Part shown: positions 5,225 to 8,082 of the stretch, one piece after another
Layout: each line of letters begins with the position of its first letter
Position numbering within the stretch: the stretch's first letter is position 1
Source of the DNA: Solirubrobacterales bacterium 70-9
GTDB lineage: Bacteria > Actinomycetota > Thermoleophilia > Solirubrobacterales > 70-9
DNA: 10,494 bases
Assembly (NCBI GenBank): GCA_001898095.1
Contig: MKSH01000070.1
Span: forward strand, 20,344-30,837
Reading direction: 5' to 3'
Program-made: the position numbers and the translations under genes
Notes under the pieces: model-generated
Told to the model about the DNA's origin: nothing
The model's database searches: none
Seen by the model: only the letters and a program-made list of their open reading frames with translations

Positions 5225-5263
5225 GGCGCGGACCCTAGATGGTCGGGGGTGCGGTGTCGGGCT

Positions 5264-5284
5264 GGGGAAGGGACGGGGAAGGGG
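5264..5284 (+). other. G-quadruplex motif upstream of the phosphoesterase gene
   Basis: Four runs of three or four G (5264-5267, 5270-5272, 5275-5278, 5281-5284) are separated by two-base loops (AA, AC, AA), a compact canonical pattern. It lies 40-60 bases upstream of the TTG start of the minus-strand phosphoesterase. A second motif with loops of four, one and three bases is at 5361-5383. In DNA this rich in G, chance motifs are common, so this is only a candidate. Confidence 0.4.
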
Positions 5285-5307
5285 ACGAGCGAGGGACGGC
5301 CAGGGGA

Positions 5308-5363
5308 CCCGGCCCTCTCGTAGGCGGTCCGGGCAGGCTGTGACCGCCTACGAGAGGGCCGGG
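5308..5363. repeat. Perfect 22-bp inverted repeat, 12-base loop
   Basis: Arms 5308-5329 (beginning CCCGGCCCTCTCGTAGG) and 5342-5363 are exact reverse complements. The loop is 5330-5341. Twenty-two perfect pairs are far beyond chance even at this GC content. No T-run follows on either strand, so it is not a standard intrinsic terminator, and it is in a divergent spacer where a terminator would not be expected. Confidence 0.88.
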
Positions 5364-5490
5364 CCTCGGGGGGAGGGCGAGGGCGCAGGTCCCGTGCGGG
5401 TCGCGGCGGAGGGTCGTGAGGGGGACGCCGGGAACCCCACGTTCCCCGAGGGAAGACGCCACGAAGTGACCCTTCCGCGAGGGCCGAGAT

Positions 5491-5539
5491 GTCGACGGGC
5501 CGGAAAGCGCTCCATATCAGCGCTTTTCGGCCCGTCGAC
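5491..5539. repeat. 21-bp inverted repeat with one mismatch, 7-base loop
   Basis: Arms 5491-5511 (GTCGACGGGCCGGAAAGCGCT at DNA level, last base at 5511) and 5519-5539 pair at 20 of 21 positions, and the exception would be a G-U pair in RNA. The loop is CCATATC. The arm sequence is unrelated to that of the 5308 repeat. No T-run follows. Confidence 0.85.
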
Positions 5540-5574
5540 CTGGGGGCGTCGCGGAGGCGTGACGTCACTCCCCG

Positions 5575-5601
5575 GGAGGCGCGCGGGACCTGCGCGCTTC
5601 C
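5575..5601. repeat. Short inverted repeat, 10-bp arms with one mismatch
   Basis: GGAGGCGCGC (5575-5584), a seven-base loop and GCGCGCTTCC (5592-5601). Nine of ten positions pair in DNA, and the tenth would be G-U in RNA. It sits between the second and third long repeats and could be chance in such GC-rich sequence. Confidence 0.5.
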
Positions 5602-5615
5602 TGCCGAGAGCCTCA

Positions 5616-5678
5616 CGTCCCTGGGCGTCTCGCGGCAAGCGGGCAGCCTGCCAGGGCCGCCGCGAGACGCCCGGGACG
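5616..5678. repeat. 20-bp inverted repeat with one bulged base, 22-base loop
   Basis: The left arm 5616-5636 (CGTCCC, T, GGGCGTCTCGCGGC) pairs fully with the right arm 5659-5678 except for the single extra T at 5622. The loop itself contains a small GGCA/TGCC stem. It ends about 60 bases before the sulfurtransferase start, so if transcribed it would lie in or just upstream of that gene's leader. Confidence 0.82.
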
Positions 5679-5735
5679 GCCCGACCCCGGCCGCAGGGGC
5701 CCCGAGGTGCGCCGTCGGTAGCGTTGGCGGCGATC

Positions 5736-6602
5736 GTGATCGAGCCGTTCGTCGACATCGAGTGGGTTCGGGCGCACCGCGACGAGGTGGTGCTCGCCGA
5801 CAGTCGCTGGTACGCCGACGGTCGGTCCGGCCGCGACGCCTACGTGGGCGGGCACGTTCCCGGGGCGGTATTCGTCGACCTCGACGAGGCGCTGACCAGG
5901 CATGAGGACGCGGCGGTCGGTGGCCGCCATCCGCTTGCCGAGCCGGAGGATTTCGCCGCCGCGATGGCGGCGCTCGGGGTCGGCGACGAGGACACCGTGG
6001 TCGCCTACGACGACGCCGGCGGTGTGATCGCCGCCCGTCTTGTCTGGATGCTCCGCGCGACCGGCCACGAAGCTGCGCTCCTCGACGGCGGCCTCGCCGC
6101 CTGGCCCGACGCCCTCGAAACCGGAGACGCCACCGAGTGCGTTCGCACTTCCCCGTCCTCGGTAAGGGAAAGTGCGAACGCACCGGTGCGGGGTGGGTTT
6201 ACGGTGCGGGCGTGGCCGGCGGATCGGCTCGCGTCGATCGACGAGGTCGCGGCCATCGCCTCGTCGGGTGGGACCGTGCTCGACGCGCGGCCCGCCGATC
6301 GGTTCGCCGGCGCTCCCGACGACCTCGATCCGCGGCCGGGGCACATCCCCGGCTCGCGCAACGTCCCCTGCCGCGAGAACCTCGACCCCTCCGGGCGGCT
6401 GCTCCCGGTCGACGACCTGCGCGCGCGCTTCGGTGTCGAGGATGCGACCGAGGTCATCTCCTCCTGCGGCTCCGGCGTCACCGCCTGCCACAACCTGCTG
6501 GCGATGGAGCATGCCGGGCTCGGGCGCGGTCGCCTGTTCCCCGGCTCTTGGTCGCAATGGAGCCGCGATCCCGCCCGGCCTGTACAGAAGGGCGCCGGCT
6601 GA
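5736..6602 (+). CDS. sseA: Two-domain sulfurtransferase, 3-mercaptopyruvate type
   Basis: A 288-residue protein with two rhodanese domains. The N-terminal domain (about 1-130) has DSRWYADGRSGRDAYVGGHVPGAVFVDLD; its active-site position holds acidic residues (YDDAGG), so it is catalytically inactive, as is normal. The C-terminal domain (about 155-285) has VLDARPADRF, GHIPGSRNVPCREN and the active loop C244-GSGVTA. C-G-S-G-V-T is the signature of 3-mercaptopyruvate sulfurtransferase (SseA), whereas thiosulfate enzymes usually carry C-R-K-G-V-T. It would form a persulfide on Cys244 and pass sulfur to thiols or cyanide in the cytoplasm. Residues about 133-151 of the interdomain linker are encoded by a long inverted repeat that looks inserted. 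I chose GTG 5736 because it gives the usual short N-terminus; TTG 5724 is an alternative, and neither has a strong ribosome site. The frame is open far upstream but is not protein-like there. Confidence 0.92.
   Translation: MIEPFVDIEWVRAHRDEVVLADSRWYADGRSGRDAYVGGHVPGAVFVDLDEALTRHEDAAVGGRHPLAEPEDFAAAMAALGVGDEDTVVAYDDAGGVIAARLVWMLRATGHEAALLDGGLAAWPDALETGDATECVRTSPSSVRESANAPVRGGFTVRAWPADRLASIDEVAAIASSGGTVLDARPADRFAGAPDDLDPRPGHIPGSRNVPCRENLDPSGRLLPVDDLRARFGVEDATEVISSCGSGVTACHNLLAMEHAGLGRGRLFPGSWSQWSRDPARPVQKGAG
6131..6188. repeat. Palindromic element inside the sulfurtransferase gene
   Basis: GTGCGTTCGCACTT (6137-6150) and its exact complement (6170-6183) form a perfect 14-bp core. Pairing continues inward for three pairs after one mismatch (6152-6154 with 6166-6168) and outward for five pairs after one bulged A (6131-6135 with 6184-6188), with an 11-base loop. 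It is read in frame as about residues 133-151 of the sulfurtransferase, in the linker between the two rhodanese domains. The right arm read on the minus strand (6186 to 6170) matches 8033-8049 at 16 of 17 bases. Confidence 0.85.
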
Positions 6603-6660: not shown

Positions 6661-8028
6661 ATGAGCGATTACGCAGTGGTCAATCCCGCCACCGGGGAGA
6701 CGATCAAGGAGTACCCGACGATCAGCGACGACGCGCTGCGCGAGGCGATCGCCCGCGCCGACGCCGCCTACAAATCGTGGTCGCACTCCTCCACCGTGGC
6801 CGAGCGCGCGGCGCTGATCCGCAAGGTCGGCGACCTGCACAAGGAGCGCGCCTCCGAGCTCGGCCAGATCATCGCCCGCGAGATGGGCAAGCCGATCGGC
6901 GAGGCCGTCGGCGAGGCCGACTTCGCCGGCGACATCTACCACTTCTACGCCGACAACGCCGAGGAGTTGATGGCCGACGAACCGATCAAGTTGCTCGGCG
7001 GCGACGGCACCGCGGTGATCCGCCGCAGCACCTACGGGACGGTGCTCGGGATCATGCCGTGGAACTACCCCTACTACCAGGTGGCCCGCTTCGCCGGACC
7101 GAACCTGATCATCGGCAACCCGGTCCTGCTGAAGCACGCGCCGCAGTGCCCGGAATCGGCCGAGGCGATGCAGGGCATCTTCGACGAGGCCGGGTTCCCC
7201 GCGGGCACCTACGAGAACATCTACGCGACGAACGAGCAGATCGAGTGGGTGATCGGCGACCCGCGCGTGCACGGGGTCTCGGTGACCGGCTCCGAGCGGG
7301 CGGGGGCGGCCGTCGCCGAGATCGCCGGGCGCAACCTGAAGAAGGTCGTGCTCGAGCTCGGCGGGTCGGACCCGTTCATCGTCCTCGCCACCGACGACGT
7401 CGGCGCGGTCGCCGAGCAGGCCGCCGCGGCGCGCTTCGAGAACGCCGGCCAGGCCTGCAACGCGGCGAAGCGCTTCATCGTCAAGGACGAGTACTACGAC
7501 GAGTTCGTCGCCAAGCTGAAGGACCAGATCGGCGGGATCAAGAAAGGCGACCCGGCGAGCGAGGACACGACCCTCGGGCCGCTCTCCTCGAAGGTCGCCG
7601 CCGACCGCCTGGAGGACCAGATCAAGCGGGCGATCGACGGCGGCGCCGAGGTCGTGGTCGGCGGCGGTCGCGACGGCAACTACTTCGAGCCGACGATCCT
7701 CGCCGGGATCGAGCAAGGCTCGGACGCCTCCCAGGAAGAGTTCTTCGGCCCGATCGCGCAGGTCTACAAGGTCGGCTCCGAGGAGGAGGCGCTGAGCCTC
7801 GCCAACGACACCCAGTTCGGGCTCGGCTCCTACGTGATCACGAACGACTCCGAGCAGGCCGAGCGGGTCGCGAACGCGATCGAAGCGGGCATGGTCTACG
7901 TCAACATCGTCGGCGCGGACGCCCCGGAGCTGCCCTTCGGCGGCTTCAAGCGCTCCGGCTTCGGCCGCGAGCTCGGCCGCTTCGGCGCCGACGAGTTCGT
8001 CAACAAGAAGCTGATCCGGGTCGGCTAG
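6661..8028 (+). CDS. NAD(P)-dependent aldehyde dehydrogenase, succinate-semialdehyde dehydrogenase (GabD1/Sad-like)
   Basis: A 455-residue member of the aldehyde dehydrogenase superfamily, the typical length of the GabD1/Sad branch. Visible landmarks: PWNYP with the oxyanion Asn135, Lys158 (LLKHA) contacting the cofactor, TGS (209-211) of the Rossmann fold, general base Glu232 (LELGGSDP) and nucleophile Cys266 (ENAGQACNA). The C-terminal EEFFGPIAQVYKV and PELPFGGFKRSGFGRELG motifs are also present. LELGGSDPFIVL together with NAGQACNAAKRFIV and the LLKHA segment favour succinate-semialdehyde dehydrogenase of the GabD1/Sad kind, which oxidises succinate semialdehyde to succinate, for example at the end of GABA breakdown. 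Substrate cannot be proved from sequence; related semialdehydes are possible. The start is supported by AGGGAG four bases upstream. It begins 58 bases after the sulfurtransferase stop and probably has its own promoter. No transaminase or GABA permease is visible nearby. Confidence 0.93.
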   Translation: MSDYAVVNPATGETIKEYPTISDDALREAIARADAAYKSWSHSSTVAERAALIRKVGDLHKERASELGQIIAREMGKPIGEAVGEADFAGDIYHFYADNAEELMADEPIKLLGGDGTAVIRRSTYGTVLGIMPWNYPYYQVARFAGPNLIIGNPVLLKHAPQCPESAEAMQGIFDEAGFPAGTYENIYATNEQIEWVIGDPRVHGVSVTGSERAGAAVAEIAGRNLKKVVLELGGSDPFIVLATDDVGAVAEQAAAARFENAGQACNAAKRFIVKDEYYDEFVAKLKDQIGGIKKGDPASEDTTLGPLSSKVAADRLEDQIKRAIDGGAEVVVGGGRDGNYFEPTILAGIEQGSDASQEEFFGPIAQVYKVGSEEEALSLANDTQFGLGSYVITNDSEQAERVANAIEAGMVYVNIVGADAPELPFGGFKRSGFGRELGRFGADEFVNKKLIRVG

Positions 8029-8037
8029 CCCCCCGGT

Positions 8038-8080
8038 GCGTTCGCAGTTGGCCACACATGGTGTGGCCAACTGCGAACGC
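8038..8080. terminator. Perfect 20-bp hairpin between convergent genes (possible bidirectional terminator)
   Basis: GCGTTCGCAGTTGGCCACAC (8038-8057), a three-base loop ATG and the exact complement (8061-8080). It fills the space between the aldehyde dehydrogenase stop (8028) and the methyltransferase stop (8083-8085, minus strand), the usual place for a two-way terminator. Neither strand carries a T-run after the stem, so intrinsic termination would be atypical. The outer part of the arm belongs to the same sequence family as the palindrome in the sulfurtransferase gene. Confidence 0.75.
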
Positions 8081-8082
8081 GG

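What the first reader, a model, noticed from the sequence alone, without database searches (positions are those of the whole stretch)
6131..6188. Palindromic element inserted in frame in a sulfurtransferase gene
A 58-base near-perfect inverted repeat (14-bp perfect core, 22 pairs in all) lies inside an otherwise intact two-domain sulfurtransferase. It encodes about residues 133-151, exactly in the linker between the two rhodanese domains, where family members usually have a short, variable segment. The frame is kept. This resembles palindromic elements that enter coding sequence, as described for Rickettsia (RPE), but in a very different, GC-rich lineage.
Basis: partly seen in the sequence, partly recalled or inferred. 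Interest (0 to 1): 0.72.

Follow-up and report, generated by a model that had tools for sequence, protein, structure and literature searches.

The report
Palindromic repeats inserted in protein genes
A short DNA palindrome, present in scores of copies in the genome of an uncultured bacterium and in some of its relatives, mostly sits between genes but also lies in frame inside some genes, where it adds about 16 amino acids to a flexible part of the protein.

Summary
The 47-nt core (6137-6183) is one of 75 palindromes of one design in its 4.2-Mb draft genome (reversed control 0), all with a 37-nt inner length. By my gene calls six of the 75 lie in frame inside genes: the window's sulfurtransferase, IspE, a RibB-flavin reductase fusion, a helicase/nuclease-like protein, a GNAT and a GcvT-family oxidoreductase; most others are intergenic. 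Two relatives lacking it have a linker 16 residues (48 nt) shorter; in the predicted structure the encoded peptide is the only internal stretch under pLDDT 50. The same IspE loop is empty in five relatives and holds a different palindrome in another. All 13 in-gene copies compared between two genomes are nearer to a copy of their own genome than to any sampled copy of the other, so copies seem replaced or converted from within. Two other palindrome families also have in-frame copies, one in isoleucyl-tRNA synthetase. No Y1 (RAYT-type) transposase was found in 12 genus genomes. I file it as a new family of protein-coding palindromic repeats (RPE/REP-like) in Solirubrobacterales. How it moves is not shown.

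The parts
6137..6183 (.). Palindromic element, 47-nt core: GTGCGTTCGCACTT, 19 variable nt, AAGTGCGAACGCAC. Pairing extends to 6131-6188. In frame inside the sulfurtransferase gene.
5736..6602 (+). Two-domain rhodanese-type sulfurtransferase (SseA-like), host gene of the insert; the element codes about residues 134-150, in the linker.
   Evidence: NCBIfam 3-mercaptopyruvate sulfurtransferase model 137.6 bits, below its cut-off of 250
8036..8082 (.). Second copy of the same family with another inner stem (GGCCACAC/GTGTGGCC), in the gap between two convergent ORFs (one ending 8028 on +, one ending 8083 on -).
5263..5716 (.). Partial copy of a larger (about 660 nt) intergenic composite repeat made of several other hairpins (5308-5363, 5491-5539, 5620-5675). 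In the six composites read in full a TTCGCA palindrome lies near one end.

Best explanation
The segment is a copy of a dispersed, non-autonomous palindromic repeat family. Shown: 75 copies of fixed size in this draft genome; conserved half-sites TTCGCA(C/G)TT facing each other; inner stems that vary with pairing largely kept; most copies between genes; six copies in frame inside genes; relatives with and without the insert. Inferred: copies are made or converted from others in the same genome, arrive in many places, and inside genes survive only where the added length is a multiple of three and the protein tolerates a flexible loop. The window's copy entered, or was converted in place in, the linker between the two rhodanese domains and would be translated as an added peptide of about 16 residues with no known function. 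What moves it is unknown. A transposase acting on a single-stranded hairpin and gene conversion between copies are the two leading candidates.
For: Copy number and fixed length: 75 places, each 37 nt inner although 31-48 was allowed, control 0. In-frame copies in six genes of different kinds, domains found by Pfam for five of them. Insert absent in relatives: sulfurtransferase linker 16 aa shorter in G003 and G058; IspE loop empty in G004, G005, G013, G019, G022 (13 of the 20 loci looked at gave the loop, 7 did not fit my expression). Flexible place: AlphaFold2 model mean pLDDT 83.4, residues 137-149 the only internal stretch under 50. Copying inside a genome: the IspE copy is identical over 37 nt to a copy of its own genome called intergenic and differs at 9 from the orthologous copy in G009; 13 of 13 in-gene copies (6 of G000, 7 of SZAS-14) are nearer to another copy of their own genome than to any sampled copy of the other; in a label-shuffle test 71 of 78 copies are nearer to their own genome, shuffled mean 30.3, maximum 51. 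Paired changes in the stem: 95 cells changed on both sides, shuffled 25.6 (sd 4.1).
Against: No mobilising enzyme found: PF01797 0 of 12 genus genomes. No target-site duplication or exact junction could be read; flanks of the species compared are too diverged. Recurrence at the same loops in many relatives also fits one old insertion plus later conversion. Against a third MAG, SZAS-10, 12 of 13 in-gene copies are nearer to their own genome and one ties. Two covariation measures do not exceed shuffles: pairs with a change on both sides 7 against 6.7, further pair types 13 against 14.0, and related rows inflate the others. The genome is a draft (84% complete, 5.7% contaminated) and gene calls are from a home-made codon model. 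G010, which has no TTCGCA palindromes, also shows 2 of 12 strong hairpins inside called ORFs. Nothing shows that the peptide is present in the mature protein.
Confidence: 0.85

Rival explanations
1. One old insertion per gene, inherited vertically. The palindrome is kept palindromic by arm-copying (template switching at replication), not by movement or copying between sites.
For: Copies sit at the same loop in G000 and in G009/SZAS-14 for sulfurtransferase, IspE and GNAT. Pairing is largely kept while the inner stem changes. Orthologous copies differ at 9, 10 and 14 of the 21 positions free to vary (43, 48, 67%); with 21 positions the first two are within error of the four-fold divergence of the host genes (54 of 175 IspE, 52 of 143 sulfurtransferase; not computed for GNAT).
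Against: The same three G000 copies differ at only 0, 3 and 2 positions from a copy elsewhere in their own genome, and copies cluster by genome. G007 has a different palindrome in the same IspE loop, a second copy of which was seen in the G007 sample (L272).
Confidence: 0.2
2. The palindromes are primarily bidirectional transcription terminators or 3'-end mRNA stabilisers that evolve in place; the in-gene copies are by-products.
For: 30 of 54 copies in classified gaps lie between convergent genes (16.3 expected by gap length, p 1.4e-4). 29 of 75 have a called gene 3' end within 20 nt, 13 on both sides.
Against: The convergent excess comes from copies with a CGTCCCC-like flank (21 of 32, loose test); without them it is 9 of 22, p 0.35. 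Only 1 of 150 flanks has 5 or more T in 9, so they are not canonical intrinsic terminators. A shared half-site, a fixed length and genome-specific variants are not expected of terminators that arose separately. REPs show a like 3'-end bias (PMC3733652, section 15).
Confidence: 0.1
3. Chance palindrome in a naturally variable linker.
For: The linker is variable in length and sequence in the family.
Against: 75 copies against 0 for the reversed pattern; z -8.8; one block-shuffled version of the 400-kb sample gave 0 hairpins at the threshold used, the real sequence 62.
Confidence: 0.01

Closest known systems
Rickettsia palindromic elements (RPE) and Wolbachia palindromic elements (WPE)
   Same: Dispersed palindromic repeats, several families, some in frame inside unrelated genes; encoded peptides in solvent-exposed areas; orthologous genes sometimes hold different groups near the same place (PMC10969869 and PMC3767692, passages seen).
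   Different: Here 47 nt, not 100-150 bp; GC-rich Solirubrobacterales; two reading frames seen; genome-specific inner stems. No sequence comparison with RPE families was made.
REP elements (GTAG- and CGTC-tagged), with or without RAYT transposases
   Same: Short palindromes, high copy, downstream of genes, sometimes supplying the stop codon (here the TGA of six called genes lies in a TGAG end), some inside ORFs, helicase and nuclease genes included (PMC3733652: abstract, section 15, passages).
   Different: The four bases outside each end are TGCG, GGCG, TGAG, CGCG and the like, in no case GTAG or CGTC; a CGTCCCC-like string does lie further out in 26 of 73 copies. No Y1_Tnp hit in 12 genus genomes.
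MITEs
   Same: Non-autonomous, dispersed, inverted-repeat, can fuse in frame (PMC10969869, passages).
   Different: Single 47-nt hairpin, shorter than the 70-300 bp given for MITEs in PMC3733652 (passage); no target-site duplication identified; no parent transposon found by the one family searched.

Membership tests
RPE (Rickettsia palindromic elements) | Dispersed palindromic repeat in many copies | tested here: met
   75 copies, reversed control 0
RPE (Rickettsia palindromic elements) | In-frame copies inside unrelated ORFs that stay open | tested here: met
   6 of 75 in own genome; 8 of 86 distinct copies from 80 of the 82 named loci
RPE (Rickettsia palindromic elements) | Length about 100-150 bp | tested here: not met
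   About 47 nt conserved
RPE (Rickettsia palindromic elements) | Sequence similarity to a described RPE family | not tested
   No RPE sequence set was fetched
RPE (Rickettsia palindromic elements) | Found in Rickettsiales | tested here: not met
   The 80 rows shown (capped scan) are Actinomycetota and Solirubrobacterales MAGs plus two single Acidobacteria records
RPE (Rickettsia palindromic elements) | Encoded peptide in a solvent-exposed or flexible part | tested here: met
   Sulfurtransferase: residues 137-149 under pLDDT 50 in a model of mean 83.4; exposure itself not computed. IspE model weak, mean 63.4, insert in a stretch under 50 (115-136) among others
REP, GTAG or CGTC tagged | Unpaired GTAG or CGTC motif at one end | tested here: not met
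   Outer tetranucleotides at 150 ends of 75 copies: TGCG 70, GGCG 33, TGAG 22, CGCG 14, CGAG 5, others 6. A CGTCCCC-like string lies further out in 26 of 73 copies
REP, GTAG or CGTC tagged | RAYT (Y1_Tnp) transposase in the genome (GTAG type) | tested here: not met
   PF01797 0 of 12 genus genomes, controls ring in 5 of 14; drafts are incomplete
REP, GTAG or CGTC tagged | Preference for gene 3' ends and convergent gaps | tested here: inconclusive
   All copies: 30 of 54 convergent, p 1.4e-4; 29 of 75 with a 3' end within 20 nt; but copies without a CGTCCCC-like flank 9 of 22, p 0.35
MITE | Target-site duplication at insertion | tested here: inconclusive
   Flanks of the filled and empty sites compared are too diverged
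Intrinsic terminator | GC-rich hairpin followed by a T-tract | tested here: not met
   1 of 150 flanks with 5 or more T in 9

The most novel reading that the evidence does not exclude
Several unrelated palindrome families in one Solirubrobacterales genus keep entering and overwriting each other in a few flexible loops of housekeeping enzymes (IspE, isoleucyl-tRNA synthetase, a MurC-like ligase, sulfurtransferase), with resident copies rewritten from same-genome copies. Loose loops of such proteins would then be a continuing landing ground for short selfish DNA, driven by a mobilising or converting system other than Y1/RAYT.
Probability: 0.45. Interest if true: 0.8.

Novelty: new member of a known kind. 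Interest (0 to 1): 0.66.

Why it matters
The papers seen describe in-frame palindromes best for Rickettsia and Wolbachia, and for Rickettsia it was left open whether different elements at one site mean a hotspot or divergence from one insert (PMC3767692, passages). Here, in a GC-rich lineage far from those, orthologous sites that are empty in one species, filled in another and filled by a different palindrome in a third can be compared, and same-genome likeness points to copying rather than simple divergence. It is a practical system for asking how short palindromes move and how proteins accept new peptides.

Tried and rejected
Rejected: a sulfurtransferase remnant at G000 C29:4720-4908. The weak protein match is carried by the shared palindrome, which there lies just after the stop of a gene I take from memory to be lepA; the rest of that alignment is poor and has stops. 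Rejected: in-frame calls for L096 (the frame runs against a better-scoring gene) and L153 (the copy lies upstream of what I take from memory to be a uvrA start). Not supported: RAYT mobilisation, no PF01797 hit; a phage vehicle, no exact match to the strict pattern in viral contigs. Rfam: no match in the 5 sources given. The IspE structure model is too weak to say more than that the insert is in a low-confidence stretch. A strict end-to-end count on 6131-6188 gave 13 of 29 pairs because it allowed no bulge; the fold is the better test.

Biases and dropped rows: the 120-row protein lists are the best hits to queries that contain the insert, and only the best 7998-8000 candidates were scored. 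The peptide motif counts use expressions of mine and miss rows (P0014 for one). That favours 'own is nearer' for G000 but works against it for SZAS-14. In some searches, 69 distinct copies of the 75 were used (duplicates and one without a 5-base flank dropped), 73 copies with 30-base flanks. The CGTCCCC flank test is loose: 26 of 73 by one orientation, 42 of 75 by either side. The class search held 199 genomes drawn evenly and only three of the 12 genus genomes; that it rang only in G000 says nothing about the other nine.

Full report
What is there. The inverted repeat reported at 6131-6188 is real and lies in frame in a two-rhodanese-domain sulfurtransferase. Its 47-nt core is GTGCGTTCGCACTT, 19 variable bases, AAGTGCGAACGCAC.

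It is a family. The two-armed pattern TTCGCANTT...AANTGCGAA occurs 75 times in the 4.2-Mb draft genome, reversed control 0, and a fixed-length version of the pattern also gives 75, so each has an inner length of 37 although 31-48 was allowed. Conservation fades at about the 45-47-nt boundary (47 copies without a CGTCCCC-like flank). Across 69 distinct copies 95.1% of cells pair, and 95 cells differ on both sides together against 25.6 (sd 4.1) in shuffles; the number of pairs with such a change (7 against 6.7) and of further pair types (13 against 14.0) does not exceed shuffles. The C/G position inside each half-site pairs in only 33 of 69. So each arm looks like a recognised half-site as well as a pairing arm; that reading is inference.

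Where copies sit. By a codon-model gene call, of 75 copies 30 lie in convergent gaps, 19 in tandem gaps, 5 in divergent gaps, 4 beside a contig edge, 11 overlap a called ORF in part and 6 are inside one. By gap length in a 400-kb sample 16.3 of 54 would be convergent (p 1.4e-4). Copies with a CGTCCCC-like flank, a mark of a larger composite repeat, carry this excess (21 of 32); the rest show 9 of 22, p 0.35. About 91% of the sample is called coding, so genes are strongly avoided. The TGA stop of six called genes lies in a TGAG end of a copy. The second copy in the window, 8036-8082, lies in a convergent gap.

In-frame copies. Besides the window gene: IspE (L105), a DHBP synthase-flavin reductase fusion (L124, between the two Pfam domains), a helicase/nuclease-like protein (L126, name by my reading), a GNAT (L137) and a GcvT/DAO-type oxidoreductase (L151). 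NCBIfam ispE gives 120.7 bits, under its cut-off of 138.7. Two reading frames are seen: VRxS......SANAP and RSxx......NCExT. In 80 of 82 named loci 8 of 86 distinct copies are inside ORFs: seven in SZAS-14 and one in MohnsGC08_bin146. They include IspE and sulfurtransferase again, a partial Mur ligase nearest to MurC (260.6 bits, cut-off 335.1), a UvrD-helicase/PD-(D/E)XK nuclease, two GNATs, a glycosyltransferase-TPR protein and one without a Pfam match.

With and without. For the sulfurtransferase, G003 and G058 have a linker 16 residues shorter, G009 has a palindrome of the same family with another inner stem, and G006 and G008 have a longer linker with no inverted repeat found. Of the 120 best protein hits 41 have the short linker and 19 fit my SANAP-type motif. 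For IspE, 13 of 20 loci looked at gave the loop: G004, G005, G013, G019 and G022 are empty; G000 and G009 have this family, G009 as a 49-nt perfect palindrome; G007 has a different long palindrome; G006, G003 and G008 have imperfect ones by eye; G017 and G050 have other short sequences. Of the 120 best IspE hits 86 fit the motif. For the L151-type oxidoreductase 54 of 120 have the short form (38-39 residues between anchors) and 19 fit the NCE-type motif. These lists lean towards the query.

Likeness within a genome. The IspE copy of G000 is identical over 37 nt to a copy elsewhere in the same genome and differs at 9 from the orthologous copy. In-gene copies are nearer to their own genome in 13 of 13 cases against the other genome of the pair, and in 12 of 13 with one tie against SZAS-10. 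For all copies: G000 71 of 75 nearer to own, 3 ties, 1 not; SZAS-14 41 of 45, 2 ties, 2 not. With flank-marked copies left out, 71 of 78, shuffled mean 30.3, maximum 51. This supports conversion or renewed insertion over plain descent and does not tell the two apart.

More than one family. A hairpin scan of stretches not chosen for the element gave 62 in 400 kb of G000, 31 in 288 kb of G007, 43 in 265 kb of G009 and 12 in 355 kb of G010; one block-shuffled version of each gave 0. Of these 1, 1, 1 and 2 lie inside a called ORF. The G009 one is the IspE copy. The G007 one is a GTTCCTTATG palindrome in an isoleucyl-tRNA synthetase (NCBIfam ileS 892.7 bits, over its cut-off) and the G000 one a GGGCCGAAAA palindrome in a FAD-linked oxidase. 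The two in G010 belong to none of the three families just named, to judge by their sequence. Strict TGTTCCTTATG palindromes number 81 in G006, 73 in G009, 35 in G007, 10 in G005, 5 in G008, 3 in G003 and 0 in the other six, G000 among them. The TTCGCA family numbers 75, 92, 74, 17 and 13 in G000, G009, G007, G006 and G003, 2 in G001, 1 each in G011 and G005, 0 in four.

Range. In an even sample of 199 genomes of the class only G000 rang. Named records with the stricter pattern, in a capped list, are Actinomycetota and Solirubrobacterales MAGs (SZAS-14, SZAS-10, SZAS-9, MohnsGC08_bin146, RYN_247, MGR_bin420) and two single Acidobacteria records. No viral contig matched.

Against known kinds. 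Behaviour matches RPEs (PMC10969869 and PMC3767692, passages) and REPs (PMC3733652: abstract, section 15, passages) in in-frame copies, stop codons supplied by the repeat, and copies in repair-type genes. End tags and a RAYT were tested and not met; RPE length and host are not met. I therefore call it a new family of the protein-coding palindrome kind, not an RPE and not a tagged REP. Eight searches of the held library (capped listings only) listed no paper whose title or abstract start concerns such elements in this lineage; most subscription papers are not held.

Mechanism. Shown: repetition, fixed form, in-frame presence, absence in relatives, same-genome likeness. Inferred: spread by an unknown enzyme or by conversion, with survival in genes limited to in-frame, flexible places. 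The structure model fits this: in the sulfurtransferase the encoded residues are the only internal stretch under pLDDT 50.

Noticed in passing
window 5263-5716: Partial copy of a composite intergenic repeat (about 660 nt in L110) of several long hairpins; 45 matches of 200 bits or more at 40 distinct places in the genome (only part of the candidates were scored). No Rfam match.
   Followed up: partly
L066 (G006) 2057-2180: The G006 sulfurtransferase has three in-frame tandem copies of a 39-nt unit beyond the linker, in the second-domain region.
   Followed up: no
P0007, P0040, P0124, P0138, P0229: Homologues with two or three palindrome-type peptides in a row in the same loop of the sulfurtransferase or IspE.
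   Followed up: no
P0010, P0025, P0045 and others: Other repeated peptides in the sulfurtransferase linker (AVDLTSGYRAKGRP type) may come from a further palindrome family; DNA not seen.
   Followed up: no
L177, L235: Single exact pattern matches in two Acidobacteria MAG contigs; may be chance or misbinned.
   Followed up: no
L126 and L175: In-frame copies in two helicase/nuclease-type genes (L126 by my reading) recall the repair-gene bias reported for REPs in ORFs (PMC3733652, section 15).
   Followed up: no
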